NCBI GenBank assembly: GCA_902783545.1
Contig: CACZRD010000017.1
Coordinates: 1-33,084 of the forward strand
From: an uncultured Bacteroidales bacterium
GTDB lineage: Bacteria > Bacteroidota > Bacteroidia > Bacteroidales > Paludibacteraceae
Direction of reading: 5' to 3'
DNA: 33,084 nt
Part shown: piece after piece, positions 3,031 through 31,145 of the stretch
Layout of the letters: each line of letters starts with the position of its first letter
Position numbering within the stretch: the first letter of the stretch is position 1
Program-made: the position numbers and the translations under genes
Notes under the pieces: model-generated
Told to the model about the DNA's origin: nothing
Databases searched by the model: none
What the model saw: only the letters and a program-made list of their open reading frames with translations

Positions 3031-5763
3031 TTAATGAACCTCTGCACCGAGAGCGTTGAAGGTTTTGCCGTCACGGATGATGAGCAGCTCGCCGTTGCGG
3101 ATGAGTTTCTGACAGCTGATGGCTGACTGCTGATTGCTCATAGGGTTCTCCAACGCCGTGGAGGCATAGACACCCCATGTCACATCATCAATGTAATACG
3201 TCACCGCACCGTCTGCGCCATTCGGGCCTACGTATTTGAACGCCATACAGAACACATCCGCTATGGTCTCGGCATAGGGCGTGAGATCGAGTATAAACGG
3301 CACCCACGTCAGATTCTCGTCAGAGGTCTTGGGAATACTGAAACTCTCTGTCAGATCCTGGAAGAACGGCTCGCCCGGTGCGTTCGGGTCGATGTAGTAG
3401 ATCTCCAGCGCTGCCTGATTCTCGTCAGCGAGGTACTCGCCCATAACCTTGAATGTGAACACTTTGTTGGCAGTGTTCTTATAGTCGAGCAGCGGTGTGA
3501 CGAGCCACATCTGCCAGTCGGCGGTATAGGATTTGCCGAACTGGTAAGCGGTCGCCTTGGCGTACTTGCCGTCGCCGCGTGCGGGCGTTGTCTTGCTCTC
3601 CTCAAATCCCCACCACGGGTGCGCATCCAGATCCGCCACGTTCTGCCAGCCATTGAGCACAAGGGTTTTGTTGTGCTCCGCGCCGTCGAACTGTTCGTTG
3701 AGCTGTGTGAGGGCATCGGTGGTCTGCCAGTTGAAGGTCGTCTGCCAATCGATATTCTCCTCGCTCTTGGCTTCGGCTGTCCCGGTGAGTGTGAGCACCA
3801 CATCATCGGCGTTCTGCGAGTAGATTGTCAGTTTGGATTCGTAACTACCCGCTGCCTGGGGTTTGAAGCTGATGGTAACGGTGCTTGTAGCGTTCTTGGG
3901 CAGCATTGTACCGTCGATGGTGAACCCTTCTCCGGTGATATGGTCCACGCGCATATATACATAATCTATACAGTTGGCGCTCGTCACGCTGACGGTCTTT
4001 GTTGCCGTCTGCCCCTCTACCGCCTCGAATGCCGGGACGGTGCTTGGCGTGACGGTGATCACGGGCTGCTGCGACGGATCGACGCACGTGGCTTTGAGCG
4101 ATATCGACTGGAACAATTCCGTATGGCTCAGGTTGTCAATGTTCAGCAGGGCAGTATGTGAGCCGGCTTTGGTCGGCTTGTAGGTGATGATCAGATCGCC
4201 CTCACCCTGGTCGGCAGGCATCGATGTCATCGACAGCGCAAACTGATCGGCATCCGTGCCGCTGAGTTCGAAGGTGGTTGCACCACTGAGGTTCCCCTGC
4301 CGAATATGTACGGTCGGGTAAGCCTGCGTCTGACCGATATTCACCTGCAGCGGCGAGAGGGTGAGCGGTGACACCTCTATATACGGATCGGTAGAAGCCT
4401 TATACACCAGGCTGAACGCGTCGGCGAGCACCTTAGCGCTCTTGGAGACCTTCAGCCGCACGCGCAGGTAGGATGATTTGGCGGGTTTGGTAGTCTGCAC
4501 CTTCACGCACTGCCAGCCTGTGGTGGTAGTAGCCAGCACCTGTTGCAGCACGTCGGCGTCATGCGCCTTGGTTGCCTCGGCATCACCGCCCGGAGCGGCT
4601 TCCCAGTAGGAATCGATCGCCACGCTGCCGTCGGCAGGCATCGTGACGACCTTGTAGTACATCGTCAGTTCGAACTTCGAGCCGGCGGCATAGTTGGCAT
4701 CGCTGAGCGCCACAGGCTGATCCAGCACCGTAGTGGAGGTTGGATTCATGCATAGTGCCACATTGCCCAGCAGTTTGTCGCTCGCATCGGCAGTAGCACC
4801 GGCGCCTTGCCCCGACCAGTCCTCGAACGAGCAGCCGAAGATCTGGCTGCACGAATAGTCCTCGAAGCCGGGGTTAGCGATCAGGTTGTTCTCCACCTCT
4901 GTCACCTCGGGTTTGGTATCATCGCCCGGCGTATCGCCCGAGCCGGAAGTATCATCGTTCCACAGGTCGTCCCACGCGGTGGCGACGCGTATCTCGTCGA
5001 TATAGATCTTCGGCGTGTTCGAGCCCTGGCGCAGGTTGACAGATGCTATCTTCGAGGCATCGCTCTTGCTGTTAGCGCCCTGCTCTGCCCCGCTGCCGGA
5101 CTGCACCGATTGCACGCACTCCAGCGTAGGCGTGGTGGTCTGCTTGGTTGGGTTGACGTACAGACGTGCCACATCATTCTTCTCACCGTCAATGAACTCA
5201 TATTCGAGTACTACGAGGTAGTCTTTCTGCGGCTCATAGATCTCATCAGTCACCCCGACATATGTAGCGCTCTCGCTTGTTTTGGCAACACCGAGTTTGA
5301 ATCCCGTGAACTCGCCACCGTCCTTCACCGACTTGGTGTACAAGCGCGCTGACATGCCGCTTGCCGTAGCATCGCCCAGACAGAGGCAGTAATCGCTTGT
5401 GGTGCTGTTCTTGAGCTCGTCCACATTGATGATAGCCGCCAGATAAACCTTTCCGCTCGTGACGGGTGACTCGAACTGACGGAAGTCATCAGCGCCGGCG
5501 GAGTAGAGATAAGCCTTGTTGCCCTTGCCGGTGCTCTGATAGCCCGGATGGGTGAGACTACCCTCCGCAACCTGGATGTAGTTACTGCTGCCGCTGTACG
5601 ACCACCAGTTAGCGGTATTGATACCCATGTCGGTATTCGCACCTTTACAGAGTTGACCAACCGTACCATTCTCACCGCTGAAACTCTCTTGCACGATAAG
5701 TTTGGCATTCGCAGTGCCCAGCATCATCAGCATGGCACTCAATAGGGATAGAAATCTTTTCAT
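3031..5763 (-). CDS. Large secreted protein with choice-of-anchor module and T9SS C-terminal sorting tail
   Basis: This 910-residue protein starts with a clear signal peptide (MKRFLSLLSAMLMMLGTANA). Residues 21-270 look like a beta-sandwich or lectin-type domain, followed by a Ser/Gly/Asp/Pro linker (TSGSGDTPGDD). A 'NPGFEDYSC' module resembling carbohydrate-binding domains spans about 290-455. Two ASH/Ig-like repeats follow (about 460-560 and 565-660; each begins with a V-(S/T)-P motif), then a choice-of-anchor-J-like domain (about 665-870, with WWGFEE and WLVTPLLD). The last 25 residues (LIRNGELLIIRDGKTFNALG) match the por/T9SS type A sorting tail, so the protein is probably exported by the type IX system and attached to the surface. 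No catalytic motif is seen; adhesion or polysaccharide binding is the best guess. A 7-bp repeat array encodes the linker just before the sorting tail. It has its own promoter and terminator. Confidence 0.85.
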   Translation of the reverse strand: MKRFLSLLSAMLMMLGTANAKLIVQESFSGENGTVGQLCKGANTDMGINTANWWSYSGSSNYIQVAEGSLTHPGYQSTGKGNKAYLYSAGADDFRQFESPVTSGKVYLAAIINVDELKNSTTSDYCLCLGDATASGMSARLYTKSVKDGGEFTGFKLGVAKTSESATYVGVTDEIYEPQKDYLVVLEYEFIDGEKNDVARLYVNPTKQTTTPTLECVQSVQSGSGAEQGANSKSDASKIASVNLRQGSNTPKIYIDEIRVATAWDDLWNDDTSGSGDTPGDDTKPEVTEVENNLIANPGFEDYSCSQIFGCSFEDWSGQGAGATADASDKLLGNVALCMNPTSTTVLDQPVALSDANYAAGSKFELTMYYKVVTMPADGSVAIDSYWEAAPGGDAEATKAHDADVLQQVLATTTTGWQCVKVQTTKPAKSSYLRVRLKVSKSAKVLADAFSLVYKASTDPYIEVSPLTLSPLQVNIGQTQAYPTVHIRQGNLSGATTFELSGTDADQFALSMTSMPADQGEGDLIITYKPTKAGSHTALLNIDNLSHTELFQSISLKATCVDPSQQPVITVTPSTVPAFEAVEGQTATKTVSVTSANCIDYVYMRVDHITGEGFTIDGTMLPKNATSTVTISFKPQAAGSYESKLTIYSQNADDVVLTLTGTAEAKSEENIDWQTTFNWQTTDALTQLNEQFDGAEHNKTLVLNGWQNVADLDAHPWWGFEESKTTPARGDGKYAKATAYQFGKSYTADWQMWLVTPLLDYKNTANKVFTFKVMGEYLADENQAALEIYYIDPNAPGEPFFQDLTESFSIPKTSDENLTWVPFILDLTPYAETIADVFCMAFKYVGPNGADGAVTYYIDDVTWGVYASTALENPMSNQQSAISCQKLIRNGELLIIRDGKTFNALGAEVH
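3112..3139. repeat. 7-bp repeat array, 4 units, translated in the T9SS linker
   Basis: Plus-strand units ACAGCTG, ATGGCTG, ACTGCTG and ATTGCTC follow each other without gaps. Read in the gene's frame they give the SNQQSAISCQ stretch (residues about 875-884), placed exactly between the last folded domain and the sorting tail. It belongs to the same GCTGA/TCAGC-type family as arrays at 6615, 19495, 20822 and 21225. Confidence 0.75.
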
Positions 5764-5801
5764 AGACGTGACGTATTTACGTTAGGATTCACAATTCGCT
5801 G

Positions 5802-5833
5802 CAAAATTACAATATTTTCTTGACAAAAGCAAA
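5802..5833 (-). promoter_or_regulatory. Bacteroidales promoter of the T9SS cargo gene
   Basis: Minus strand: -33 TTTG (5833-5830), 20-nt spacer, -7 TAATTTTG (5809-5802), a full match to TAnnTTTG. The leader would be about 32-36 nt. It is arranged back to back with the promoter of the plus-strand operon, with 36 bp between the two -33 boxes. Confidence 0.82.
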
Positions 5834-5869
5834 TTATTCCTTAGGAAAATATCAAAAAATTCAAAAAAA

Positions 5870-5901
5870 TTTGCATTTGTGCATTTTTTTTTGTAATTTC
5901 G
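5870..5901 (+). promoter_or_regulatory. Bacteroidales promoter of the twelve-gene plus-strand run
   Basis: -33 TTTG at 5870-5873, 20-nt spacer rich in T, then -7 TAATTTCG at 5894-5901 (one mismatch to TAnnTTTG). The start codon of the first gene is 30 nt beyond. I find no other convincing promoter among the tightly packed genes downstream, so it may drive the whole run, though internal promoters cannot be excluded. Confidence 0.7.
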
Positions 5902-5931
5902 TGCGTTTTTTGCTAAAGCAAATAGTAGTAT

Positions 5932-6573
5932 ATGAAGAATATCGCATTTATCATCAATCCGATGTCGGGCACGCAGAACAAACGTCGTCTGCCCAAACTG
6001 ATCAACGAGCTGCTGGATAAACGTCAGTGGCTAGAGAACATCGTGTTCACCGAGCACGTGGGTCACGCCCTCGTTCTCGCCAAGCAATATGCCACGATGG
6101 GCTTCGATGCCGTGGTCGCTGTGGGCGGTGACGGAACGGTACGCGAGGTAGCGGAAGGCGTAGCGGGCAGCCACTCGGCGTTAGGGGTTATCCCTATGGG
6201 GTTGACGAACACCCTGGCTCGCCACCTTGGTATCCCCTTGCGCGGCAACGCATCGCTGCTGTGGTTGAACCACTGCGAGCCCGTGCTGTGCGACAGCATG
6301 CAGGTAGTCATCGACGGCGAACAACGCCTGACAGCTATGACGGAGGTCGTAGCCGGTGACACACGGATCATCAACTGCGCACAAGGCGTGAAGACGAGTA
6401 TTCAGGACGGCATTCTTGAACGGTTAGCGGTTAACAGCGAGCGGTTAGCGGCTGACAGTCTGGAGTACAGCGGGCAGGTGATCGTGGATAGCGAGGAGTA
6501 CGATGTAGAGCGGGAAGTGAAGGTCAGTGTGGCAGAAGATTCAATTTACGTATTAGCGCAAAAGAGATTTTGA
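5932..6573 (+). CDS. Short diacylglycerol/lipid kinase-like protein (YegS/DgkB family), probably truncated
   Basis: The N-terminal 130 residues are a DAGK catalytic-domain fold: IAFIINPMSG nucleotide-binding start, AVVAVGGDGTVREVAEG, and IPMGLTNTLARHLGIP where the family usually has a G-T-G-N-D motif. Family members run to about 290-330 residues; this one has 213. The normal second beta-sandwich domain, which carries further catalytic acidic residues, is largely missing or replaced. In its place residues about 165-176 are encoded by a 7-bp repeat array (ERLAVNSERLAADS), followed by a short beta-rich tail. It may therefore be a decayed enzyme or a shortened family member with a different role. 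It is the first gene of the plus-strand run, and its TGA stop overlaps the TTG start of the next gene, suggesting translational coupling. Confidence 0.75.
   Translation: MKNIAFIINPMSGTQNKRRLPKLINELLDKRQWLENIVFTEHVGHALVLAKQYATMGFDAVVAVGGDGTVREVAEGVAGSHSALGVIPMGLTNTLARHLGIPLRGNASLLWLNHCEPVLCDSMQVVIDGEQRLTAMTEVVAGDTRIINCAQGVKTSIQDGILERLAVNSERLAADSLEYSGQVIVDSEEYDVEREVKVSVAEDSIYVLAQKRF
6424..6458. repeat. 7-bp repeat array, 5 units, in the lipid-kinase-like gene
   Basis: Contiguous units TTAGCGG, TTAACAG, CGAGCGG, TTAGCGG, CTGACAG. Translated in frame near the point where homology to the kinase family fades. The first and fourth units are identical. Confidence 0.8.
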
Positions 6574-8096
6574 GGCAGGCACGATACATAGTATTGGCAT
6601 GGGCGCTGATTGTAGTCAGCGGTCAGCTGTCAGCGGCCAGCAAGCAACGATCAGTTCTGACGGAGCAGGAGCAGATGCGTCTGGACTACTATCTGTATGC
6701 CGCCCTGCAGGCTTCGGAGAGCAATGAGCACGCCAAAGCGTTCTTCCTGCTGGAGCTATGCAACGAGACAGATCCCGACAACCCGACCGTCTGCTCGATG
6801 CGCGGCGCGTATATGCAGAGTCTGTACGACAAGAAGACTGCCCTACCCCTGCTACGCAAAGCCTACGAGGGTTCGCCGGATGACTACTGGTACCGATACG
6901 CCGTGACAGCCTACGAGACCGGTCATCGCGATGTTACGATGAAGGTGCTCAAAAACATGCGCAAGCGCCAGCCGAAAGACATTGATGTGCTCGAGTTGTA
7001 CGAGAGCATCTACCGTCACGAGCACAAGACCAAAGAAGCCCTCGCCATACGCGATGCCATCGACAAGCTCACCGGCGAGCCTACAGAGCAATCGGTGATG
7101 ACACGCTTCGATATTCTGCGTGGCGCCAATCGCGGCGATGAGGCGTTTCGCGTGCTGGAGGACTACCTTGTACGCGACCCGAACAACGGACGCGTACAAG
7201 CCATGCGCACAGATATACTGCTCGGCCGGGCGCTGAGTAAGTCCGATCGTGCGAGCGCACGCGAGTACTTACGACAGATGCTGCACAACCCCGATGTACC
7301 ATTACAGCGCAAGCTATGGCTCGTGAATACCTACCGCAACACCTTAGGTTACGACGAGCAGGGTAAACGCGCGCTGCTGCTCGAGCTGCGGGACATGTAC
7401 CCCTACGAACAGCAGGTATATCAAGCCCTGCTGGATTATGAGAAGGAGCAGGAGAACTACAGCGCAGCCTTAGAGATAGGGCGGACAATGCTGAACATGA
7501 ACCCCACCGATGCCGAGCTGCGTGAACAGATAGCCAACCTCATGCGCGATGATGACAGCGTGACGACAGAAGAGGTCGGGCTGTTCATCGACGAGAGTTA
7601 CGCCGTTCTGCCCGACAATCCCAAGTGGGGTTACTTCAAAGCTCTGCGCTGCTGGCAACACGGTGATCAGGACTCAACACTGATCGTGCTGGAGCGTACA
7701 CTGAAGAACGCCGAGGAACCGATGGTCAGACTCGAGCTGCTCGTGCTCTACGGCGACCTGAACGGACAGCTCAAGCGCTACGACAAGGCGTATGCCGCCT
7801 ACGATGAGGCGCTCAAACTCGCGCCCGACCACATCGGCGTGCTGAACAACTACGCATGGACACTCGCCATCAGCGGCGGCGACCTGAAGAAAGCCGAGAA
7901 AATGAGCCAGCGCACCATACAGAAAGATGCAAATAACCCCACGTACCTCGACACCTATGCGTGGATCCTGCACCTGCAGGGACAAGACACCCTGGCGCTG
8001 TTCTATATCAAGAAAGCTATGGAAAACGCCACGCATGATGACGGGACGATAGCGGAGCATTATAAGGCGATAAAAGACCGCTGCGCTCAAAGATAA
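6570..8096 (+). CDS. Secreted/periplasmic tetratricopeptide repeat protein
   Basis: This 508-residue protein has a short hydrophobic N-terminus (YIVLAWALIVVSGQLSAAS) that should act as a signal peptide, followed by helical TPR-type repeats over about residues 35-500 (for example ALPLLRKAYEGSPDDYWYRYA, and later AYAAYDEALKLAPDHIGVLNN with NPTYLDTYAWILHLQG). Proteins of this type occur beside DUF4292 and EnvC-like genes in Bacteroidales, as here, and are thought to scaffold envelope complexes. No in-frame ATG exists near the front; TTG overlapping the preceding stop (TTGA), with AAAGAGA just upstream, is the best start. Part of the signal peptide is encoded by a 7-bp array, and the last codons plus the stop by a 23-bp repeat shared with the TrmH-family gene. 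The exact partner is unknown. Confidence 0.85.
   Translation: MRQARYIVLAWALIVVSGQLSAASKQRSVLTEQEQMRLDYYLYAALQASESNEHAKAFFLLELCNETDPDNPTVCSMRGAYMQSLYDKKTALPLLRKAYEGSPDDYWYRYAVTAYETGHRDVTMKVLKNMRKRQPKDIDVLELYESIYRHEHKTKEALAIRDAIDKLTGEPTEQSVMTRFDILRGANRGDEAFRVLEDYLVRDPNNGRVQAMRTDILLGRALSKSDRASAREYLRQMLHNPDVPLQRKLWLVNTYRNTLGYDEQGKRALLLELRDMYPYEQQVYQALLDYEKEQENYSAALEIGRTMLNMNPTDAELREQIANLMRDDDSVTTEEVGLFIDESYAVLPDNPKWGYFKALRCWQHGDQDSTLIVLERTLKNAEEPMVRLELLVLYGDLNGQLKRYDKAYAAYDEALKLAPDHIGVLNNYAWTLAISGGDLKKAEKMSQRTIQKDANNPTYLDTYAWILHLQGQDTLALFYIKKAMENATHDDGTIAEHYKAIKDRCAQR
6615..6642. repeat. 7-bp repeat array, 4 units, inside a signal peptide
   Basis: Units GTCAGCG, GTCAGCT, GTCAGCG, GCCAGCA run in frame through the VSGQLSAAS part of the TPR protein's signal peptide, at the expected cleavage region. 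Confidence 0.7.
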
Positions 8097-8128
8097 AAGA
8101 CCGCTTCGCTGAAAGACAAAAGACAAAG
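8069..8128. repeat. 23-bp tandem element (2 copies plus partial) across a gene end
   Basis: Two adjacent 23-bp copies (8069-8091 and 8092-8114) begin GATAAAAGACCGCT and end CTCAAA or CTGAAA, differing at two positions. A third, truncated A/G-rich copy (GACAAAAGAC) follows. The first copy encodes the final residues IKDRCAQ of the TPR protein; the second supplies the stop as GA-TAA. The same element, in the same frame and also supplying the stop, occurs at 12116-12175. Confidence 0.85.
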
Positions 8129-8820: not shown

Positions 8821-8823
8821 TTA

Positions 8824-8900
8824 TTGGCCGTTAGCCATTAGCCATTGGCCGTTAGCAGCCAAAAGCTAAAAGCCAAAAGCCAAAAGCCAAAAGCCAAAAT
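8824..8900. repeat. Eleven-unit 7-bp repeat array between the DUF4292 and EnvC-like genes
   Basis: Exactly 77 bp, eleven heptamers with no slip: five of the TTGGCCG / TTAGCCA / TTAGCAG type, then six of the CCAAAAG type (one CTAAAAG, one CCAAAAT). The two unit families meet in phase. The array fills almost the whole gap between the DUF4292 stop and the next ATG, 4 bp before it. Confidence 0.92.
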
Positions 8901-11059: not shown

Positions 11060-11575
11060 ATGATTAGCGAGAACGAGTTGGTACATATCGGTAGGATGCA
11101 GCGCACGCACGGCACGTGTGGCGAGTTGCAATGCCGCATGACGAACACGTGCTGGGAGGATCATGATGCCACGTTCATCATACTGAAGATAGATGAGATC
11201 TTCGTTCCGTTTCGCGTCACAGACTGGCGCACGAAGGGCAGCGAGGATGTGCTGCTCACAATCCAAGGAATCAGCACCGAGCAGCAAGCCTCGCGACTGA
11301 TTGGCGCAGAAACGTATATGTTACGCAGCGACCTGCCGGCAGATACCGAGCTGCCCACCGATCTCGCCTCACTCTACGGCTACACGCTGCGCGACGAGAC
11401 ACACGGAGAGATAGGCACAATCACCGCCATTGACACCTCGACGATGAACACGCTCGTAGAACTTGACAACGGAATACTGTTGCCGCTGCACGAGGATCTG
11501 ATCACCGGTATTGACCAACAAGCCAAGCAGATACGAGTAAACCTGCCGGAGGGACTGATTGAGAGTGAAGAGTGA
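11060..11575 (+). CDS. rimM: Ribosome maturation factor RimM
   Basis: RimM assists late 30S assembly by binding S19 and the 16S rRNA head. The 171-residue protein has the RimM N-terminal beta barrel (HIGRMQRTHGTCGELQCRM) and the C-terminal PRC-barrel part (LYGYTLRDETHGEIGTI, then ILLPLHEDLITGID and IRVNLPEGL). Length is normal. The tail IESEE and its TGA stop are encoded by a 7-bp repeat array that also runs into the front of the next gene. It stands 3 bp after the Rieske-like lipoprotein gene and in front of two RNA-modification genes. Confidence 0.93.
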   Translation: MISENELVHIGRMQRTHGTCGELQCRMTNTCWEDHDATFIILKIDEIFVPFRVTDWRTKGSEDVLLTIQGISTEQQASRLIGAETYMLRSDLPADTELPTDLASLYGYTLRDETHGEIGTITAIDTSTMNTLVELDNGILLPLHEDLITGIDQQAKQIRVNLPEGLIESEE

Positions 11576-11597
11576 AGAGTTAATAGTGGAAAGTGCA
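11556..11597. repeat. 7-bp repeat array across the rimM stop and the next gene's start
   Basis: Units TGATTGA, GAGTGAA, GAGTGAA, GAGTTAA, TAGTGGA, AAGTGCA follow in phase. The rimM stop (TGA at 11573-11575) is inside the third unit. The array also encodes the possible N-terminal residues of the TrmH-family protein, which makes that start uncertain. Confidence 0.82.
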
Positions 11598-12143
11598 AAG
11601 AAGAGCATAGCAGAGATGCATCGTTTGACGCCGGAAGCGTTTCGCGAAGCAAAGAAAGTGCCACTCGTCGTGGTGCTGGACAACGTGCGCAGCCAGCATA
11701 ATGTCGGCGCGGTGTTCCGCACGGCGGATGCGTTCTGCATACAGGGGCTGTGTCTGTGCGGCATCACCTGCTGCCCGCCGAATGCCGAGCTACATAAGAC
11801 AGCATTAGGCGCAGAGCAGACGGTCGAATACACCTACTACGCCAACACAGTTGACGCTATCCGCGCGCTGCATGAGCAAGGATACAAGGTGTTTGCCATC
11901 GAGTTGGCACACAACGCCGTGACCTTGGAGCAAGCCATCACCGCGCATACTTCAGGAGCGCCTGTGGCACTGGTTCTCGGGCATGAGGTGTTCGGCATAG
12001 CGGATGAGGTGATGGCTGTGTGCGACGGCTGCATCGAGTTGCCGCAGTACGGCACGAAACACTCGCTGAACGTCAGCGTCACGGCAGGCATCGTGATGTA
12101 CGCGTGGGCAAGAGCGATGCGAGACCGTTTCACTGAAAGATAA
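11586..12143 (+). CDS. TrmH/SpoU-family RNA 2'-O-methyltransferase
   Basis: A SPOUT methyltransferase of about 185 residues. Motif 1 is VVLDNVRSQHNVGAVFRTADAF, motif 2 ALVLGHEVFGI and motif 3 IELPQYGTKHSLNVSVTAGIVMYAW, the knotted S-adenosylmethionine site. It should methylate a ribose 2'-hydroxyl in tRNA or rRNA. The start is unclear: GTG at 11586 is my choice because Bacteroidales homologues begin about 15-20 residues before the LTPEAF segment. TTG at 11559, GTG at 11565 and ATG at 11616 are alternatives; the extra residues of the longer forms are repeat-encoded. The last residues (MRDRFTER) and the stop come from the 23-bp element also found at the end of the TPR gene. Confidence 0.88.
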   Translation: MESAKKSIAEMHRLTPEAFREAKKVPLVVVLDNVRSQHNVGAVFRTADAFCIQGLCLCGITCCPPNAELHKTALGAEQTVEYTYYANTVDAIRALHEQGYKVFAIELAHNAVTLEQAITAHTSGAPVALVLGHEVFGIADEVMAVCDGCIELPQYGTKHSLNVSVTAGIVMYAWARAMRDRFTER

Positions 12144-12175
12144 AAGACCGTTTCACTGAAAAAGTAAAGACTAAG
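12116..12175. repeat. 23-bp tandem element, second locus, across the TrmH-family gene end
   Basis: Two copies (12116-12138 and 12139-12161), each ending in ACCGTTTCACTGAAA, followed by an A/G-rich partial copy (AAGTAAAGACTAAG) directly before the ATG of the U32 gene. The second copy starts GATAAAAGACCG exactly as at 8069 and 8092, and again contributes the TAA stop. The first copy has drifted to GATGCGAGACCG, still in the same reading frame. Confidence 0.85.
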
Positions 12176-19600: not shown

Positions 19601-20063
19601 TATCGAGAATATCAGCGAGCGTATCACGCTCTATCGCGAGCTCGACTCCCTGCGCGACGAGCAGGAGCTCCTCGCCTACGAGAAACGTCTCATTGACCGC
19701 TTCGGTGCCCTACCCGAGCAAGCAAAAGAACTGCTGAATGTCGTACGCCTGCGTTGGCTGTGCTGCCGCCTGGGTATAGACAAGATCCTGCTCAAGGGCG
19801 AGAGAATGGCACTCTATCTGCCGCAGAACAACGATGCTTACTACCAGAGCGAGACCTTTGCGCACCTCATCCAGTATGCCGTCAGCCGACCGCAGCGTTG
19901 CATGTTCCATGACGAGCCCGTGCGCACCAAAGGTCTGACGGAAGCCGAACTCAAGACAATACCGCACAAACGGTATATAACCATACAAAACGTCAAAACC
20001 ATTGCCGGAGCTATCAACTTGCTGAGCAAGATTGAGCACCCGGAAACACAAGAACAGTTATGA
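16671..20063 (+). CDS. mfd: Transcription-repair coupling factor Mfd
   Basis: Mfd displaces RNA polymerase stalled at lesions and recruits UvrA. The 1130-residue product is full length. UvrB-like N-terminal domains (about 1-340, with FVYEPGQFAIRGGIVDIY and RLDFFGDEIDSIR), the RNA-polymerase-interacting CarD-like domain (QVGDYVVHSDHGIGRFGG, about 419-437), the translocase with Walker A GDVGFGKTEIAMRA (about 568), motif II DEEQKFGV (about 670) and motif III TATPIPRTL, and motif VI QLRGRVGRS are all present. The C-terminal TRCF domain follows from about 960. Between the translocase and TRCF domain a 7-bp array encodes part of a linker (about 942-953). The stop overlaps the kdsB start (ATGA). Confidence 0.97.
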   Translation: MTIDELRQRLTDGHSEIAAVAGQLAQRPAGHLLITGLHASARSVVLSALREQDKTHAVHLIVCDNADEAQYLYADMRTLGGDKAAATLLFFPHSHRRRQSTIDESMAIQRTQTLSALLQQDKHPAIVTYPEALSELSCPPDVMQQSSLSLHTGDETSIAALTARLLDLGFQRVDFVYEPGQFAIRGGIVDIYSYASEYPFRLDFFGDEIDSIRTFDIETQLSDKRVDEVAIVRTDESENMVSLAAYLPPSTLYIGNNIHLTPLHAALQDSAPDWSDTIEIGTKCSYDTYSRIAFDTLPQPLFHKQFEMLMQDMTEKIALGYTIYILSDYKKQTDRLAAIMAAIPTTQDDNRLPDEQAERKALFTPVDHALHSGWIDHTHKIACYTDHQIFERYHRVTLTSDNARRGKAVMTLKELNQLQVGDYVVHSDHGIGRFGGLVTTGVNGKPQEMIKLIYRDGDTIFVSIHNLHRISKYKGKEGTAPTVSHIGSGAWERLKERTKDKVKEIARDLIRLYATRKQQQGVAYSPDGYMQQELEASFIYEDTPDQAKATLDVKHDLESHQPMDRLICGDVGFGKTEIAMRAAFKVATDGKQVAVLVPTTVLALQHYTTFKERFQNFPVKVEYLSRAKTPKEVKEILEQLASGQIDILIGTHKLIGKTVKWHDLGLLIIDEEQKFGVAVKEKLKSLRTNIDVLTLTATPIPRTLQFSLLGARDLSVITTPPPNRFPVITETITLDDEDIIKEAIDIEMARNGQVFVVCNRIEMLERIEHRLHRLCPDARMVIAHGQMPADEVAQRLEDFINYEYDILISTTIIESGIDIPNVNTMFIFSAQHYGLADLHQLRGRVGRSNRKAYCYLITPERELLTPEARRRIDAITTFAELGSGFHLAMQDLDIRGAGNMLGAEQSGFIADLGYETYQRILNEAVEELKDEMHLTPDESEESADSQEPTVNGQSSARRWVSDAQFECDLQVNFPPDYIENISERITLYRELDSLRDEQELLAYEKRLIDRFGALPEQAKELLNVVRLRWLCCRLGIDKILLKGERMALYLPQNNDAYYQSETFAHLIQYAVSRPQRCMFHDEPVRTKGLTEAELKTIPHKRYITIQNVKTIAGAINLLSKIEHPETQEQL
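19495..19529. repeat. 7-bp repeat array, 5 units, in an Mfd interdomain linker
   Basis: Units CGGCTGA, CAGCCAA, GAGCCGA, CAGTCAA, TGGCCAA are translated in frame as ADSQEPTVNGQ-like residues between the helicase and TRCF domains, a position where most Mfd proteins tolerate length change. A degenerate continuation (AGTTCGG) may follow. Confidence 0.75.
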
Positions 20064-20836
20064 AGTTTATAGCCATTATCCCCGCCCGCTACGCTTCGAC
20101 CCGCTTGCCGGGCAAACCGCTGGCGATGCTTGCCGGAAAGCCGGTGATCCAACATGTGTATGAGCATGTGGCGCAATGTCCGGCTCTGACCGATGTGCTC
20201 GTCGCTACCGACGACGAGCGGATTCTCAGTGCGGTACAGGCCTTTGGCGGCAAAGCGCTAATGACGCGCGCCGACCATCGCTGCGGTACAGACCGATGTC
20301 TGGAGGCAATGAACAGTTGGTTGAACGAGCACCCCGGAGTAGATGCTAAGGATCTGGTCGTTGTGAATGTGCAAGGCGACGAACCCTTCGTACACCCCGA
20401 ACAGATCAGCGACATCTGCCGATGCTTTGATGCTTCCGGCACCGACATCGCTACGCTGGCTCGCCCTTATACGGCGGATGACACATGGGCAGACTTGCAG
20501 AATCCTAACACCCCGAAGGTGGTCTTCGACAAAGAAATGCGCGCTATCCTCTTCTCACGCAGTGTCATCCCCTACCTGCGTAACGCAGCGCAAGAGCAAT
20601 GGCTCACTCAACACACGTACTACCGTCATGTGGGCATGTACGCTTACCGCGCATCCGTATTGTGCACGGTAGCTGCATTGCAGCCTACGCCTCTGGAGAT
20701 AGCCGAGAGTCTGGAGCAACTGCGGTGGTTAGAAAATGGCTACACCATCCGTGTAGCCATCACTCGTCACACCACAATAGGCATTGACACACCCGACGAT
20801 CTACGCAAAGCCGAGCAGTATATCAGCAATCAGTAG
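20060..20836 (+). CDS. kdsB: 3-deoxy-manno-octulosonate cytidylyltransferase
   Basis: KdsB makes CMP-Kdo from CTP and Kdo for lipopolysaccharide inner core synthesis in the cytoplasm. The 258-residue protein opens IPARYASTRLPGKPLAML, the CTP-binding signature, and carries VVNVQGDEPFVHPEQI, ADHRCGTDR and YYRHVGMYAYRASVL, all family hallmarks. Length is typical. It overlaps mfd by the ATGA motif and closes the plus-strand run. Its last codons and TAG stop are inside a 7-bp array shared with the end of the converging HAD gene. Confidence 0.96.
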   Translation: MKFIAIIPARYASTRLPGKPLAMLAGKPVIQHVYEHVAQCPALTDVLVATDDERILSAVQAFGGKALMTRADHRCGTDRCLEAMNSWLNEHPGVDAKDLVVVNVQGDEPFVHPEQISDICRCFDASGTDIATLARPYTADDTWADLQNPNTPKVVFDKEMRAILFSRSVIPYLRNAAQEQWLTQHTYYRHVGMYAYRASVLCTVAALQPTPLEIAESLEQLRWLENGYTIRVAITRHTTIGIDTPDDLRKAEQYISNQ

Positions 20837-20849
20837 TCAGTTATCAGAC
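20822..20849. repeat. 7-bp repeat array joining two convergent stop codons
   Basis: Units ATCAGCA, ATCAGTA, GTCAGTT, ATCAGAC. The array holds the TAG of kdsB (20834-20836) and, on the other strand, the TGA of the HAD gene (20846-20844). Only 7 bp separate the two coding regions. No terminator hairpin is seen here. Confidence 0.82.
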
Positions 20850-21419
20850 TTTTAGGAATTGCGCCCCCAAGGCTTTAGCCAATTGACCATCCGTGTCCTC
20901 TCTATCACCGATGAACAGCACTTGCCGCCAATTCAGGGCGGCATTGTTGATGGCAGTCTTGACTGCATCGCCCAGACGCGGATCGGGTTTGACCGTACCA
21001 TAATCTCCTGCGGCAAGGATAGCATCAAAGTCGGCGGTCTGTAGTCCCAAGGCCTGCAATTTCTCCTTTACAGCCTCGTAATCTGACAGGATGATAATCT
21101 TTATCTTGCGCTGCTTGCACTCATCGATCAAGTCTTGCAGCCATGACTGCGGATGATAATGCTTGCGGATGACCTCCACCATCGATGGCAAGTAGTTTTC
21201 CCTATACCACTTATCTGTGAACCGCTGCCGGCTGATGGCTGAGGGCTGACCGCTGACCACTGCCCGCTGCCGGCTGCGCCAACGGCGCTCGGCTATCAAC
21301 GACGGCAGATGCCTGCGCTGCTTGCGGATCATGTACCACGCCATACGCGGCTTGCTGTAGATCGTGCCGTCCATGTCCAGCACCACAGCCTTGATATCTT
21401 TCGGTATAGGAATACGCAT
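20844..21419 (-). CDS. HAD-superfamily hydrolase with a repeat-encoded insert
   Basis: A 191-residue phosphatase-type HAD protein. Motif I is VVLDMDGT (nucleophile Asp15, acid/base Asp17), motif II ILSDYE, motif III TVKPDP, and motif IV GDREDTD, so the active site looks intact. The small helical cap follows motif I, and in it residues about 47-65 (RSRQRAVVSGQPSAISRQR) are encoded by an eight-unit 7-bp array, between RRW and FTDKWY. This insert is unlikely to belong to the ancestral cap, and could change substrate access. The substrate cannot be told from sequence; the N-terminal layout resembles small sugar-phosphate or haloacid-type phosphatases. It is the last gene of the minus-strand run, 7 bp after the GH3-like gene. 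Confidence 0.85.
   Translation of the reverse strand: MRIPIPKDIKAVVLDMDGTIYSKPRMAWYMIRKQRRHLPSLIAERRWRSRQRAVVSGQPSAISRQRFTDKWYRENYLPSMVEVIRKHYHPQSWLQDLIDECKQRKIKIIILSDYEAVKEKLQALGLQTADFDAILAAGDYGTVKPDPRLGDAVKTAINNAALNWRQVLFIGDREDTDGQLAKALGAQFLKV
21225..21280. repeat. Eight-unit 7-bp repeat array inside the HAD cap domain
   Basis: Exactly 56 bp: CTGCCGG, CTGATGG, CTGAGGG, CTGACCG, CTGACCA, CTGCCCG, CTGCCGG, CTGCGCC. Every unit starts CTG, the first and seventh are identical, and none slips phase. It is translated as a basic, Ser/Gln-rich stretch in the minus-strand gene. Confidence 0.92.
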
Positions 21420-26692: not shown

Positions 26693-28564
26693 TTATTGTT
26701 TCTGTTTTTGCGATCTGCGCAGCCACCTGAGCAGCCACTCTTTTACGCTGCTGACAAGCCGCCATATTGCCGACGGCTGCGGGATATCCGTGAGCAGTAT
26801 ATCCTGTCCCTCGGCGTGGGTGCGCTGCTCGGGGAAAAGCAGCAGGGTACTATACTCACCGAAGAATTCCTTCAACATCCGCGGCACCTGTTTGAACAAC
26901 GGATTATAACTCGGCGTCGAGTATCGCGCCTGAATGAGCACCAGCATGTCATCAGCCTTAATCTGCTTGGCTATCTGCAGTACGTCTTCCCAGCCTGTCA
27001 TCTCGCGGTACGAGGCACGCAGATACTTTCCCTGACGTGCGCACAACGCTTGCAGCGGACGCTTGGCATCATCGTCGCAGTAGAACACTACCTTTGCACC
27101 TATCTGACTGCTCAGTCGGCGTATCTGACCGAAACACGAGATGAAGTCGCGCTCTTTCTCCGCGTGTTGCGGCACGGCTACCAGCAATCGGTTGATCGTG
27201 TTCAGCGGCTGATGCTCGTGGTAGATAACCACGGATTTTCCCGAACGCTCCACGAACTGCTCGGCGGCCTGCCAGTCAAAGGCTGTCACGAACTCCGGCT
27301 CCGGCAACTGGCTGAAGGTGGAGATCGTGCGCAGCGCTTCGTCGCGCTGCTCGCCGACCTGCATCACCAGCCACCGGTCTTCCGTGCGCTCGCTCTCCAG
27401 CCGGGCTTCCTCCTGAAGCGCAAGTTCCTTGGCTGCGTGTTCGGTAACAAACGATGCCGTGGTACACAGCACCAGGATCATCACGATCGTGCCGTTCAAG
27501 ATCGTCACATCGAATAGTCCGACCTGGTAGCCTATCGTCACTATCGCCAGCGTGCCTGCCGCCGTGGCGTGCGTCAGACCGAACATCAGTTCTCTATCCA
27601 GCGACGAGAGCCGGAACGTACGCTGCGCCAGCCATGCTGCCAGCCACTTGCTCGCCAGCTTCGTACCGATCATCGCCAGCGCCATGATCGCTGTACCCCA
27701 GCCGGCTACCACCAGTCGCACGTCAATCATCATACCGACGCCCAGCAGGAACAACGGCACGAAGATCGTATTTCCTACGAAGTTGATCCTACCCATCAGC
27801 GGCGAGAGGTTAGGCACCCATTTGTTCAGCGCTACACCGCAGAGGAACGCACCGAGGATACCCTCCAGCCCTGCCCAGTTAGCCAGGCCGGCACTCCCCA
27901 CCAGCATCAGCATCACCATCGCGAAACCTGCCGCGGTGGCTTGCTTGTGGTGGAAGAACCACTTGGCTATCATCGGGAACGCACCGAACGTCACCGCGCC
28001 CAGCAATGCGGTCTTGCCTGCCAGCGTCCACCAGTACTGCCAGCCGTCGCCGGCAAGCAGCTGGCTCTTCAGTACTGCCAGCACAAGCAGCGACAAGGTG
28101 ATCGACAGCATCGTCGCGCCCACCGTCATGTTCACTGCGGCCGACTGCTGCACACCGTAACGGTTGACGATAGGATACGTCATCAGCGTATGACTGCCAA
28201 ACATCGCGCCCAGCAGCGCACTCGTCTGCCACGAAATGCCCATCACGCGCGCGACGAGCAGTCCCATCATGAACGGGAAAAGGAACGTATATAAACCGAA
28301 TGTCACAGCCCCCAGCCTGTACTGACGGAAGTCATTCATGTCGATCTCTATACCGGCCTGCAACATGATATAGAGCATACCCATCTTACCCAACACATCT
28401 ATCGTGTGGTTCGGGGCGATCAATCCCAACCCGTGCTCACCGACCACGATGCCCACGATGATGAACCCCACGATGGCAGGCACGTGTATCACGCGGCACA
28501 CCATCGGCACCAGCCAGATGATGGCCAGCACTAAGGCTAATATGGCATACGTATCGGTTATCAT
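26693..28564 (-). CDS. CPA2-family cation:proton antiporter with C-terminal USP-like domain
   Basis: 623 residues. About the first 390 form the monovalent cation/proton antiporter membrane domain of the KefB/Bacteroides type: GEHGLGLI, GKMGMLYIMLQAGIEIDM, then GSHTLMTYPIVNRYGV, AVNMTVGATMLS, GILGAFLCGVALN and GVGMMIDVRLV. The cytoplasmic C-terminus (about 400-600) resembles a universal stress protein fold (SVVIYHEHQPLNTINRLLVAVP; DDMLVLIQARYS) and could sense nucleotide or pH. It should exchange Na+ or K+ for protons at the inner membrane. Its ATG is separated from the small RHH gene by a 25-bp gap filled with a 7-bp array. Confidence 0.92.
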   Translation of the reverse strand: MITDTYAILALVLAIIWLVPMVCRVIHVPAIVGFIIVGIVVGEHGLGLIAPNHTIDVLGKMGMLYIMLQAGIEIDMNDFRQYRLGAVTFGLYTFLFPFMMGLLVARVMGISWQTSALLGAMFGSHTLMTYPIVNRYGVQQSAAVNMTVGATMLSITLSLLVLAVLKSQLLAGDGWQYWWTLAGKTALLGAVTFGAFPMIAKWFFHHKQATAAGFAMVMLMLVGSAGLANWAGLEGILGAFLCGVALNKWVPNLSPLMGRINFVGNTIFVPLFLLGVGMMIDVRLVVAGWGTAIMALAMIGTKLASKWLAAWLAQRTFRLSSLDRELMFGLTHATAAGTLAIVTIGYQVGLFDVTILNGTIVMILVLCTTASFVTEHAAKELALQEEARLESERTEDRWLVMQVGEQRDEALRTISTFSQLPEPEFVTAFDWQAAEQFVERSGKSVVIYHEHQPLNTINRLLVAVPQHAEKERDFISCFGQIRRLSSQIGAKVVFYCDDDAKRPLQALCARQGKYLRASYREMTGWEDVLQIAKQIKADDMLVLIQARYSTPSYNPLFKQVPRMLKEFFGEYSTLLLFPEQRTHAEGQDILLTDIPQPSAIWRLVSSVKEWLLRWLRRSQKQKQ

Positions 28565-28570
28565 CTATCC

Positions 28571-28591
28571 CTCAACTGTCAACTATCAACT
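28571..28591. repeat. 7-bp repeat array between the RHH-like and antiporter genes
   Basis: Three clear units CTCAACT, GTCAACT, ATCAACT (the next, AATCAAA, is a degenerate fourth). The TAG stop of the RHH-like gene lies at its edge (28592-28590). Confidence 0.75.
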
Positions 28592-28802
28592 AATCAAACA
28601 GCGTCGGGCTGTCTTTGTCCAGACGTTTGAGTATTGCGCGTATCAGCGTCTGACGGATCATATCCGAGCGGTTGCTGTACTTGTACCGCTCACAGTAACG
28701 CGTGATCGTGCGCAGTTCGCTATCATTGAGCAGCACCGTGATCGGATGATTCCTCGGCTGCCGCTTGAACTTTCCCGATGACGAATTCTTCGGTTGTTTC
28801 AT
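28590..28802 (-). CDS. Small ribbon-helix-helix-like protein
   Basis: Seventy residues from the ATG reading MKQPKNSSSG; a GTG three codons earlier lies in the 7-bp array and is less likely. After a basic tail (SSGKFKRQPRNHPIT), the core reads VLLNDSELRTITRYCERYKYSNRSDMIRQTLIRAILKRL, which has the strand-helix-helix layout of Arc/CopG-type repressors: a beta strand, then helices separated by a turn at YSNRS. The ending DSPTLFD is acidic. If so it binds DNA as a dimer, possibly regulating its own run (antiporter and others), but no operator is evident. Both sides are bounded by repeat arrays. No toxin partner is seen. Confidence 0.6.
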   Translation of the reverse strand: MKQPKNSSSGKFKRQPRNHPITVLLNDSELRTITRYCERYKYSNRSDMIRQTLIRAILKRLDKDSPTLFD

Positions 28803-28803
28803 T

Positions 28804-28831
28804 CTCTTCACTATTCACTCTTCACTATCTA
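28804..28831. repeat. 7-bp repeat array upstream of the RHH-like gene
   Basis: Units CTCTTCA, CTATTCA, CTCTTCA, CTATCTA in phase, directly before the gene's ATG on the minus strand (reads GTGAAGAG-like there). It belongs to the same GAGTGAA family as the array at 11556. Confidence 0.78.
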
Positions 28832-28854
28832 CTGGTTTCGTGGTGTCTTCTTCA

Positions 28855-29631: not shown

Positions 29632-29660
29632 GGTTAGCATATGCACATAATTTGACGCTA

Positions 29661-29692
29661 CAAAGATACAAAAAAAATCCCGCATTTGCAAA
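29661..29692 (-). promoter_or_regulatory. Bacteroidales promoter of the six-gene minus-strand run
   Basis: Minus strand: -33 TTTG (29692-29689), 20-nt spacer with an eight-T run, -7 TATCTTTG (29668-29661). The start codon lies 29 nt beyond. The -33 box falls in the loop of the gdhA terminator and the spacer uses the terminator's T run, so the two elements overlap. Confidence 0.82.
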
Positions 29693-29703
29693 TTTCTGCG
29701 GGA
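29669..29703 (-). terminator. Intrinsic terminator of gdhA
   Basis: Minus strand: TCCCGCA (29703-29697) pairs with TGCGGGA (29684-29678), a 12-nt loop, then eight or more T (29677-29669). It ends transcription about 60 bp beyond the gdhA stop. Flanking A/T runs may allow both directions. Confidence 0.85.
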
Positions 29704-29740
29704 CTTTTTTTCAAAAAAGTATAATTTTAAGAAATTATAC
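29703..29740. repeat. Two AT-rich inverted repeats beyond gdhA
   Basis: ACTTTTTT / AAAAAAGT (29703-29720, loop TC) and GTATAATTT / AAATTATAC (29719-29740, loop TAAG) are perfect 8- and 9-bp stems between the gdhA stop and the terminator. They could act as RNA 3'-end stabilisers or extra terminator strength; purely structural call. Confidence 0.5.
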
Positions 29741-29761
29741 CCTGTTCTGGCATATCTGCTG

Positions 29762-31105
29762 TTAGATTATTCCTTGCTCCAACATAGCCGTGGCTACTTT
29801 CATGAAGCCGGCGATGTTCGCACCTTTGACATAGTCAATGGTGCCGTCTTTCTGGGTGCCGAACTTCACGCACTGCTCGTGGATGGACTGCATGATATGG
29901 TGCAGACGCTCGTCCACCTCTTCGGCTTTCCAGCTCAGGTGCTCAGCGTTCTGGGTCATTTCCAGACCGGAGGTAGCTACGCCGCCGGCATTGACAGCCT
30001 TGCCCGGGGCAAACAGCACGCCGTTGTGCTGGAAGAAGTGGATAGCGCCGGGTTGGCAACCCATATTACTTACCTCGCAGCAGCACCAGCATCCGTTGGC
30101 TTTCAGCTCCTTGGCATCGTCCTCGCTCAGCTCGTTCTGGAAGGCGCAAGGCAGAGCTATATCGCACTTGATCGACCAGGCTTTCTTGCCTTCGGTGAAG
30201 TGAACCTTACCGGGGAACTTCGTTGCCATATCCTCTACGCGGTTGCGGTTCGAGGCGCGCATAACGAGCATGTAATCAATCATCTCGTCGGTGATGCCGT
30301 CGGGTATCTCTACCACGCCGTCAGGACCGCTGATAGCTACGACCTTTGCTCCGAGCTGTTTGGCTTTGGTGGCAGCACCCCACGCTACGTTACCGAAGCC
30401 GGAGATAGCAATACGTTTGCCCTCGATGGACTTGCCTGCCGTGTGCAGCAGGTGCTGGGTGAAGTACAGTGCGCCGAAGCCCGTTGCCTCCGGACGCAGG
30501 ATCGAGCCGCCCCACGTCATACCTTTGCCGGTCAGCACGCCGGTGTGGTACTCGCGAGCGAGCTTCTGATACATGCCGTTCAGGAAGCCTATCTCACGAC
30601 CGCCTACGCCTACGTCACCGGCAGGTATATCCTGATCCGGACCGATACAACGCCAGAGCTCGAGCATGAACGCCTGGCAGAAGCGCATGATCTCGTCGTC
30701 GGACTTGCCTACAGGATCGAAGTCCGAACCGCCCTTCGCACCGCCCATAGGCAGCGTGGTCAGCGCGTTCTTGAACGTCTGCTCAAAGCCGAGGAACTTC
30801 AACATCGACGGCGTAACGGCGCGATGGAAACGCAGTCCGCCTTTGTACGGGCCAATGGCTGCGTTGAACTGCACGCGGTAACCAAGGTTCGTCTGCACCT
30901 TACCCTCGTCATCCACCCACGTCACGCGGAACGTGAAGATACGATCGGGCTCAACCATCCGCTCGATGATCTGTGCACGCTCAAATTCAGGATGCTGGTT
31001 GTAGGTCTCCTCAATCGACTCGAGAACTTCCTGTACAGCCTGTAAGTACTCGGCTTCACCCGGGTGCTTGGCAGCTAAACGCTGCATGATTTCACTTGTT
31101 TTCAT
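29762..31105 (-). CDS. gdhA: NADP-type glutamate dehydrogenase
   Basis: 447 residues, the usual size of the hexameric class. Core motifs are intact: GPYKGGLRFH and GGAKGGSDFDP (substrate and catalytic lysines), PAGDVGVGGREIGF (catalytic Asp), then the coenzyme domain GFGNVAWGAATKAKQLGAKVVAISG, and NAGGVATSGLEM. It aminates 2-oxoglutarate with NADPH to glutamate, the central ammonia-assimilation route in gut Bacteroidales. The coenzyme preference is family inference. The ATG is 20 bp after the histidine-kinase stop, in a 7-bp array. An intrinsic terminator follows. Confidence 0.97.
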   Translation of the reverse strand: MKTSEIMQRLAAKHPGEAEYLQAVQEVLESIEETYNQHPEFERAQIIERMVEPDRIFTFRVTWVDDEGKVQTNLGYRVQFNAAIGPYKGGLRFHRAVTPSMLKFLGFEQTFKNALTTLPMGGAKGGSDFDPVGKSDDEIMRFCQAFMLELWRCIGPDQDIPAGDVGVGGREIGFLNGMYQKLAREYHTGVLTGKGMTWGGSILRPEATGFGALYFTQHLLHTAGKSIEGKRIAISGFGNVAWGAATKAKQLGAKVVAISGPDGVVEIPDGITDEMIDYMLVMRASNRNRVEDMATKFPGKVHFTEGKKAWSIKCDIALPCAFQNELSEDDAKELKANGCWCCCEVSNMGCQPGAIHFFQHNGVLFAPGKAVNAGGVATSGLEMTQNAEHLSWKAEEVDERLHHIMQSIHEQCVKFGTQKDGTIDYVKGANIAGFMKVATAMLEQGII

Positions 31106-31145
31106 GATTGGTGATTTGATATTTGTTATTGGTTGTTTGTTATTT
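31104..31145. repeat. 7-bp repeat array from the kinase end into the gdhA start
   Basis: Plus-strand units ATGATTG, GTGATTT, GATATTT, GTTATTG, GTTGTTT, GTTATTT. On the minus strand it reads as CAATAAC / AAATATC-type units. The kinase TAA stop (31128-31126) lies in one unit, and the array reaches to the gdhA start codon. Confidence 0.8.

What the first reader, a model, noticed from the sequence alone, without database searches (positions are those of the whole stretch)
3112..31145. Dispersed degenerate 7-bp tandem arrays recur throughout the window
Eleven separate arrays of phase-keeping heptamers (3 to 11 units each) are described, with several related unit families (TTAGCGG/GTCAGCG, CTGACCG, GAGTGAA, CCAAAAG, CAATAAC-type) and two mixed arrays. 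Arrays lie inside operons, at gene junctions, or in coding linkers and termini. The promoter-bearing gaps 1735-1822, 2927-3030, 5764-5931 and 29632-29761 hold none. Distinct sequences sharing the period 7 and the same placement suggest one process (slippage, template-switching or a mobile element) rather than chance. Resembles short tandem heptamer repeats known from some other bacteria, but I know of no settled description here.
Basis: partly seen in the sequence, partly recalled or inferred. Interest (0 to 1): 0.78.

Follow-up and report, generated by a model that had tools for sequence, protein, structure and literature searches.

The report
Short 7-letter repeats invading genes
This gut bacterium carries many short runs of 7-letter DNA repeats that come and go quickly between related species, filling gaps between neighbouring genes and even sitting in frame inside essential proteins, which suggests that short DNA patches are repeatedly written into the genome rather than built up one unit at a time.

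Summary
The window (a MAG near rumen Paludibacteraceae) has 11 heptamer arrays; shuffled controls give about none, and 7 is the dominant tandem period in a 505-kb sample of the genome (112 arrays against 0.8 expected). Density is 45 per 10 kb in co-directional gaps of 80 nt or less, 3.0 in longer ones, 6.8 in divergent gaps and 1.2 in gene interiors, so the placement claim is a tendency, not a rule. Half of the arrays (62 of 125) lie in gene interiors, as in-frame peptides in variable loops of RecF-like, MurC, MiaA, cysteinyl-tRNA synthetase and other proteins. Turnover is fast: between two siblings at 76-86% DNA identity 3 of 28 array sites keep the same unit. Gene-interior length differences are multiples of 3 in 14 of 14, yet over all sites only 3 of 22 non-zero differences are multiples of 7, the chance rate. 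Variation sits in a few fixed unit positions, and one of two families tested shares strings between loci beyond a Markov null. I favour patch-wise copying or replacement plus local slippage, filtered by selection. Heptamer arrays are known; this multi-family, in-frame, patch-like form is a new variant. The enzyme is unknown.

The parts
3109..3141 (-). Array, gene-sense units RTCAGCN, about 26-37 codons before the stop of the 910-aa gene 3031-5763
   Evidence: 14-nt row 87%; score 11
6421..6451 (+). Weak array GTTAGCG/GTTAACA about 40-50 codons before the stop of the diacylglycerol-kinase-domain gene 5932-6573; no array of score 9 there in G001 or G007
6615..6641 (+). Array GTCAGCN at the 5' end of the TPR gene 6570/6594-8096; no array of score 9 there in G001 or G007 (each has about two heptamer-like units nearby)
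8069..8127 (+). 23-bp dispersed repeat with AAAGACA heptamers, end of one gene and gap before 8128/8134; related copies elsewhere in the genome and genus
8823..8899 (+). Composite array (NTTRGCY)n(RGCYAAN)n in the gap 8820/8845 and the called start of the M23 peptidase gene; folds as 5-bp stems with 2x2 loops; G007 has CTGAAAA-type heptamers there, G001 no array
11562..11600 (+). Array AGTGAAG at the overlap of the rimM-like and SpoU-methylase genes; no array there in G001 or G007
12122..12171 (+). 23-bp repeat in the 12143/12176 junction; the same junction holds CTGAATA-type heptamers in G007
20816..20847 (+). Weak array RTCAGYN across the 3' end of the cytidylyltransferase gene 20060-20836; no array there in G001 (G007 not comparable)
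21221..21277 (-). Array RTCAGCN/GGCAGCG coding residues ~47-65 of the HAD hydrolase 20844-21419; stands where 19 of 19 more distant orthologues have a longer segment of constant length
28572..28597 (-). Array AGTTGAN just upstream of the start of the Na+/H+ exchanger gene 26693-28564
28804..28828 (-). Array AGTGAAN in a co-directional gap upstream of a short called ORF 28590-28802
31105..31148 (-). Array AATAACA/AATCACC ending at the start codon of the glutamate-dehydrogenase-family gene 29762-31105 and overlapping the 3' end of the histidine-kinase gene 31126-33066

Best explanation
The arrays belong to a genome-wide population of short heptamer arrays made of a few interrelated unit families (RGCYAAN, RTCAGYN, AGTYGAN, AATTRAN, AATCACN and others). 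Patches holding a few units (3-9 in the two families parsed) are written into, or over, existing sequence, most likely by copying from other arrays in the genome by short-homology template switching or ectopic conversion; they then change length by slippage. Selection removes most insertions: survivors lie in short operon gaps and, in the coding orientation and a net multiple of 3, in variable loops and ends of proteins. Because 7 and 3 share no factor, an array reads as the same 7-residue peptide in all three frames, so any frame is usable if the unit has no stop. SHOWN: period, placement, in-frame presence, turnover, position-specific degeneracy. INFERRED: copying as the source, replacement as a single event, the selection story in detail, and any enzyme.
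For: Not chance. Units collapse into few families: 134 arrays in 21 clusters, mean neighbours 14.4 against 4.3 with shuffled units. Turnover: 28 array sites in 38 kb between G015 and G046 - 3 with the same unit, 3 with different units in both, 22 detected in one species only; 14 of 14 gene-interior sites differ by multiples of 3 (5 of these zero), and only 3 of 22 non-zero differences over all sites (1 of 9 in gene interiors) are multiples of 7. Nine insert-bearing loops in five genes: 18 of 253 sibling loops have a period-7 array, mostly of other units (sequences). Segment replaced or lost in the window HAD gene; length-neutral loop change in CysS against G001 and G007 and at one G015 site. 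Variation concentrated in the top two unit positions: 0.818 against 0.681, 0 of 1000 nulls as high in G000; similar in G022 and G015. Family A strings >=21 nt shared between loci: 26 pairs against 7.5 simulated in G000 and 8 against 2.5 in G015, 0 of 100 simulations as high. Antisense reading would put a stop into 71 of 120 coding arrays.
Against: Family B shows no excess sharing between loci (1 pair against 1.2), and even in family A the longest shared string is no longer than simulated (58 and 27 of 100 simulations as long). The simulation does not model array-to-array composition, and family A units are more alike within an array than across arrays (0.144 against 0.092, 7 of 1000). Some local duplication is plain: MiaA loop 2 has four identical AATCTGC units in G000 and is 21 nt longer than in G001; single positions are slightly more alike in neighbours (position 5 in A and B); lag identity falls slowly with distance. 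In G015 the two most variable positions are not adjacent more often than the null. G007's HAD segment is also short, so the loss may have preceded the array. No target duplication or conserved flank was seen, no reverse-transcriptase hit, no enzyme named. The siblings compared are 76-86% identical, so later indels blur the original events.
Confidence: 0.5

Rival explanations
1. Ordinary replication slippage: a chance heptamer duplication at each site is amplified in 7-nt steps, then mutates; period 7 reflects a polymerase property, as proposed by Mrazek and colleagues (as cited in PMC4679880 and PMC4692102).
For: Some recent local expansion (MiaA); 14-nt and 21-nt periodicity in several arrays; within-array likeness in family A; known over-representation of heptamer repeats.
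Against: Shared unit families genome-wide. Whole neighbouring units are no more alike than units shuffled within the array in family A (0.144 against 0.141) and less alike in family B (0.053 against 0.114, 2 of 1000 shuffles as low). Mutations avoid core positions. Between siblings 3 of 22 non-zero length differences are multiples of 7.
Confidence: 0.27
2. Functional sites: arrays are binding sites for a translation or RNA-binding factor, placed just before start codons, as MacGregor suggests for TAACTGA.
For: 27 of 41 arrays at co-directional junctions in G000 end within 10 nt of the start codon; short-gap enrichment; conserved unit cores.
Against: Orthologous junctions often lack the array or have other units; 62 of 125 arrays lie in gene interiors; 131 of 166 co-directional gaps of 15-80 nt have none.
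Confidence: 0.1
3. Contingency (phase-variation) loci: frame-shifting arrays switch genes on and off.
For: Units of 7 shift the frame; some arrays are nearly perfect.
Against: Hosts include housekeeping genes with net frame kept in 14 of 14 gene-interior comparisons; many arrays are short and degenerate.
Confidence: 0.04
4. A discrete mobile element, like a MITE or the Rickettsia palindromic elements, with its own ends and transposase.
For: Presence/absence at many sites; a composite array folds as a hairpin, and composites have a fixed polarity, 10 against 0.
Against: No shared flank seen in the 96 flanks printed, many unit families, variable length, equal-length unit switching at two gene sites.
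Confidence: 0.08

Closest known systems
TAACTGA heptamer direct repeats of Beggiatoaceae, Cyanobacteria and five Bacteroidetes (MacGregor 2015, PMC4679880; abstract and sections 3, 8, 10, 15, 24 read)
   Same: Heptamer direct repeats, mostly intergenic, next to start codons, some in ORFs; mixed heptamers in some genomes; reported in Bacteroidetes, among them Paludibacter; indels mostly in 7-nt increments between two Cyanothece strains.
   Different: There one exact unit, related heptamers rarely or never repeated in the main genome, and ORF insertions mostly at protein ends; here several degenerate families, many deep in-frame insertions, and sibling length differences that are mostly not multiples of 7.
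GGGAATC / GGGGA(C/T)T heptamer repeats of Xanthomonas and Nostoc (Rehm 2015, PMC4692102; abstract start and passages read)
   Same: Degenerate heptamer unit with conserved and free positions; many copies; length and sequence vary between relatives.
   Different: G-rich, quadruplex-forming, one family, studied mainly as intergenic.
STRR heptamers of cyanobacteria, including copies in the RNase P RNA gene (Vioque 1997; only the title seen, in the reference list of PMC2858038; heptamer nature recalled and from passages of PMC4692102)
   Same: Heptamer arrays dispersed in a genome and inside a functional gene.
   Different: Host RNA gene there, protein genes here; no RNase P RNA hit in this incomplete MAG to compare.
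Rickettsia palindromic elements (via review PMC10969869, passages read)
   Same: Repeats inserted in frame into many unrelated protein genes.
   Different: RPEs are ~150-bp elements in ten families, each coding a conserved peptide; these are arrays of a few tens of nt without fixed ends.

Membership tests
Bacterial heptamer simple-sequence-repeat arrays (STRR/LSSR kind) | Excess of tandem period 7 over other periods and over shuffled sequence | tested here: met
Bacterial heptamer simple-sequence-repeat arrays (STRR/LSSR kind) | Dispersed multicopy presence, enriched per base in intergenic sequence | tested here: met
TAACTGA repeats (MacGregor) | Unit TAACTGA as the main direct repeat | tested here: not met
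   largest clusters are CCAATAG-, AGAAATC- and AACAATT-type; a TAACTGA-type array was seen as one case (L025:12252)
Slippage-generated microsatellites | Neighbouring units more alike than distant units of the same array | tested here: inconclusive
   not met by whole-unit shuffles; slightly met at single positions; weak decay of identity with lag, but lag 7 was the selection criterion
Slippage-generated microsatellites | Length differences between relatives are multiples of the unit | tested here: not met
   3 of 22 non-zero differences are multiples of 7, at 76-86% identity; MiaA loop 2 differs by 21 nt
MITE / Rickettsia-palindromic-like mobile element | Conserved ends or terminal inverted repeats | tested here: not met
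   no shared flank motif by eye in 96 flanks printed: 85 of 85 family A arrays and 11 of 38 family B arrays; other families not looked at
MITE / Rickettsia-palindromic-like mobile element | Target-site duplication at empty/filled site pairs | tested here: inconclusive
   siblings too diverged
MITE / Rickettsia-palindromic-like mobile element | In-frame insertion in protein genes | tested here: met
Reverse-transcriptase-templated repeats | RVT_1 gene in the genome | tested here: not met
   no hit in the 78%-complete MAG, so a missed gene is possible; the control search found hits in 3 of 14 genomes

The most novel reading that the evidence does not exclude
A dedicated or semi-dedicated copying process in this genus keeps writing short patches from a genomic pool of degenerate heptamer units (four or five fixed letters plus two or three free ones) into spacers and protein loops, so that housekeeping proteins continually gain and lose frame-independent 7-residue peptides: a selfish or diversity-generating repeat with neither transposon ends nor stepwise slippage.
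Probability: 0.3. Interest if true: 0.82.

Novelty: new variant of a known kind. Interest (0 to 1): 0.62.

Why it matters
Why 7-nt arrays are over-represented in bacteria is an open question, usually answered by polymerase slippage. This genus has many sequenced species and fast turnover, so the question can be tested: the sibling comparison already shows gains that keep the frame but are multiples of 7 only at the chance rate, and unit replacement at constant length. It also shows a route by which repeat DNA becomes loop sequence in essential proteins.

Tried and rejected
Chance or composition: rejected by shuffled controls. Strand bias as a sign of an RNA origin: first suspected by eye; inside genes it is largely explained by stops and hydropathy (antisense has stops in 71 of 120 arrays, mean hydropathy +0.97 against -1.00), and in gaps the counts are small and mixed. 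Matching of inserted peptide to local hydropathy: no correlation (r 0.04). Conserved flank of composite arrays (CCAAAGTRAA): only 3 copies in each of three genome samples. Reverse transcriptase and RNase P RNA insertion: nothing found in the incomplete MAG. Methylation-driven transitions at R and Y positions: considered, not tested. Assembly artefact: unlikely, since frame is kept and 26 of 31 genus genomes sampled show at least one array. Function as terminators, rut sites or G-quadruplexes: considered, not tested. Papers: the rows listed (20 of 39; 20 of 73; 12 of 19; 12 of 19; 12 of 15; 10 of 130; 26 of 26) showed no report of multi-family heptamer arrays in frame in housekeeping genes of Bacteroidales; the library is open-licence only and I read only the passages named.
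Full report
What was checked. The window is a whole contig of an unnamed 1.92-Mb, 149-contig genome (78% complete). Gene content and the closest named relatives of its glutamate-dehydrogenase-family protein, Paludibacteraceae or Bacteroidales MAGs from goat reticulum, sheep colon and similar sources (best 80 kept of more), place it near rumen Paludibacteraceae. Three are weak alone (6421, 8112, 20816).

More than chance. With codons shuffled inside genes and Markov-simulated gaps (5 rounds) the window has 9 segments at score >=11 against 0.0 expected, the hit-independent sample of 167 kb 15 against 0.0, and the 505-kb sample 112 against 0.8. Periods 14 and 21 are harmonics; the next period, 9, gives 23 against 3.2. 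Part of the 505-kb sample (L009-L027) was chosen because it matched a window array, so its density is inflated; the hit-independent stretches give about 0.9 per 10 kb. Period-11 arrays (19 against 0.2) and a dispersed 23-bp element also exist.

Placement. In 637 kb 125 arrays divide into: co-directional gaps up to 80 nt 32 (45 per 10 kb), longer co-directional gaps 6 (3.0), divergent gaps 6 (6.8), convergent gaps 3 (13.5), gene ends 12 (2.5), gene interiors 62 (1.2), contig edges 4. G022 and G015 agree for short gaps (59 and 77 per 10 kb), though G022 has no array in its 3.6 kb of divergent gaps. In G000 35 of 166 co-directional gaps of 15-80 nt carry an array, and 15 of 41 junction arrays fill the spacer from stop to start within 10 nt. 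Gene calls are from my own dicodon script.

Inside genes. 53 of the 112 arrays of the first sample lie at least 120 nt from both ends of the called gene. I followed five such genes across 31 genus genomes: RecF-like (28 sequences with the query, one truncated), MurC (29), MiaA (28), cysteinyl-tRNA synthetase (30, one not covering the site) and a FolC-like Mur ligase (30). I picked these five by eye as recognisable housekeeping genes. Pfam supports RecF/SMC, tRNA-synt_1e, IPPT and Mur_ligase families; PDB matches name MiaA and MurC; the names RecF and FolC beyond that are recalled. In the nine insert-bearing loops 18 of 253 sibling loops have a period-7 array of score 9 or more: 5 of 27 in RecF, 1 of 28 in MurC, 1 of 27 and 2 of 27 in the two MiaA loops, 0 of 28 in CysS, and 0, 6, 0 and 3 of 29 in the four FolC-like loops. 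These are mostly other units in the same loop. RecF before the Walker-B strand: ATCAGCA in G000, GTCAGCA in G007, ATCAGCC in G018, GAATCAG in G004, TCTACAC in G017, AAAGTCG in G022. MiaA: AGCCAAG in G015. FolC-like: TTTCAAA in G006, AGTCAGG in G003, ATTCAGC in G022. In MiaA loop 2 G000 and G001 share the RTCAGCN type and differ by exactly 21 nt.

Inside the window. The HAD hydrolase 20844-21419 looks like replacement, not simple insertion: over the aligned stretch 19 of 19 more distant orthologues have 231 nt, G007 204 and G000 192, where the array codes RSRQRAVVSGQPSAISRQ (22 of 31 genomes had a match; two partial hits and one weak second hit, L386, L390 and L389, were left out). As G007 is short there too without an array, the loss may have come first. 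At the 11 syntenic places shown no window array is matched in G001 or G007 by an array of the same unit; G007 has its own heptamers at two of them (8820/8845 and 12143/12176) and an 8-nt repeat at a third (13924/13950, by eye).

Sibling test. G015 and G046 (blocks of 76-86% DNA identity, 38 kb) have 28 sites with an array of score 10 or more in at least one: 3 keep the same unit (two identical, one with two changes), 3 have arrays of different units in both, 16 are detected in G015 only and 6 in G046 only (a few of these have weaker or other repeats in the partner). Net length differences are multiples of 3 in 14 of 14 gene-interior sites and in 10 of 14 gap or gene-end sites. Of the 22 non-zero differences 3 are multiples of 7 (21, 28 and 63), the chance rate; in gene interiors it is 1 of 9. 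Two gene sites switch unit at constant length, and one gene site gains an array at constant length. This argues against gain by 7-nt steps alone, but at this divergence later indels may contribute. The stretches were not chosen at random: several lay near repeat matches or the five genes.

Unit structure. 134 arrays (score >=9) fall into 21 clusters with 14.4 mean neighbours against 4.3 for shuffled units. In family A (RGCYAAN; 52 arrays, 239 units) and family B (RTCAGYN; 36 arrays, 150 units) of G000 the fixed positions are 95-99% conserved while R, Y and N vary. The parser allowed one core mismatch per unit, so this is not forced, though it favours conserved cores. Family-free, over arrays of at least 28 nt with at least 3 variant letters, the two most variable positions hold 0.818 of the variation in G000 (81 arrays) against 0.681 for evenly thrown changes (0 of 1000 nulls as high), 0.889 against 0.705 in G015 (35 arrays, 0 of 1000) and 0.873 against 0.718 in G022 (13 arrays, 1 of 1000); they are adjacent more often than the null in G000 and slightly in G022, not in G015. 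Whole neighbouring units are not more alike than units shuffled within the array (A 0.144 against 0.141; B 0.053 against 0.114, 2 of 1000 as low), but family A units are more alike within than across arrays (0.144 against 0.092) and position 5 of both families is slightly more alike in neighbours. Lag identity over whole arrays falls slowly from 0.84 to 0.75 in coding arrays of G000, a mild sign of local duplication, but lag 7 was the selection criterion. Family A loci share exact strings of >=21 nt in 26 pairs against 7.5 simulated (G000) and 8 against 2.5 (G015), 0 of 100 simulations as high; the longest shared string is not longer than simulated, and family B shows no excess (1 against 1.2). 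An earlier shuffle test points the same way for A (7 of 500 as high) and shows nothing for B and C.

Composite arrays. (NTTRGCY)n followed by (RGCYAAN)n, as at window 8823-8899, occurs at 6 places in the G000 sample and 4 in G015, and the reverse order at none in G000, G015 or G022. The window copy folds as 5-bp stems with 2x2 loops, -23 kcal/mol, z -4.65. Its meaning is unknown.

Distribution. Over loci and stretches held per genome, 26 of 31 genus genomes show at least one array; density runs from 0 (G009, G010, G016, G020, G044) to 4-6 per 10 kb (G022, G015, G018); G000 itself is at 7.5 there because its loci carry the inserts. The five genomes sampled outside the genus have 0 or 1 array in 20 kb each. 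The loci were chosen by the five insert-bearing genes and some stretches by repeat matches, which biases these numbers.

Reading. The period, families, placement, in-frame presence and turnover are shown. Copying of patches between arrays is my inference from shared strings, unit switching and length-neutral change; slippage acts too. Selection explains where arrays survive: the antisense reading would hold an in-frame stop in 71 of 120 coding arrays and is more hydrophobic.

Known or new. Heptamer arrays are a known kind: MacGregor 2015 (abstract and sections 3, 8, 10, 15, 24 read; [quoted passage not shown] New here is the combination of several degenerate families, frequent deep in-frame patches in housekeeping genes, and sibling evidence against stepwise growth. 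The rows listed by my literature searches (partly capped lists) held no such description, in an open-licence library only.

Noticed in passing
window 8069-8124 and 12122-12171: A dispersed 23-bp repeat (GATAAAAGACCGCTGCGCTCAAA type) recurs in the genome and genus; related letters stand in the RecF loop of G043 and, more weakly, G022.
   Followed up: partly
L021:15722-15799, L041:995-1049, L043:3291-3349, L033:15248-15343: Period-11 arrays in gaps, a second excess period (19 against 0.2 expected), with units unlike the heptamers.
   Followed up: no
window 383-423: A 12-bp repeat TTTTCTGTATGG x3.4 near the 3' end of the Schlafen/AlbA-domain gene 181-1734.
   Followed up: no
L358:1326 and L358:19794: T/C-rich units coding hydrophobic peptides (SIFIFQFSI, LSPFIFHLSP) lie at about residue 20 of two called proteins of G015, possibly in signal peptides.
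   Followed up: no
[quoted passage not shown]
   Followed up: no
L010:4258-4358 and L010:5693-5791: Period-9 clusters (AATCCGTTC, TCCGTCCCA types) repeated every 37-40 nt in gaps.
   Followed up: no
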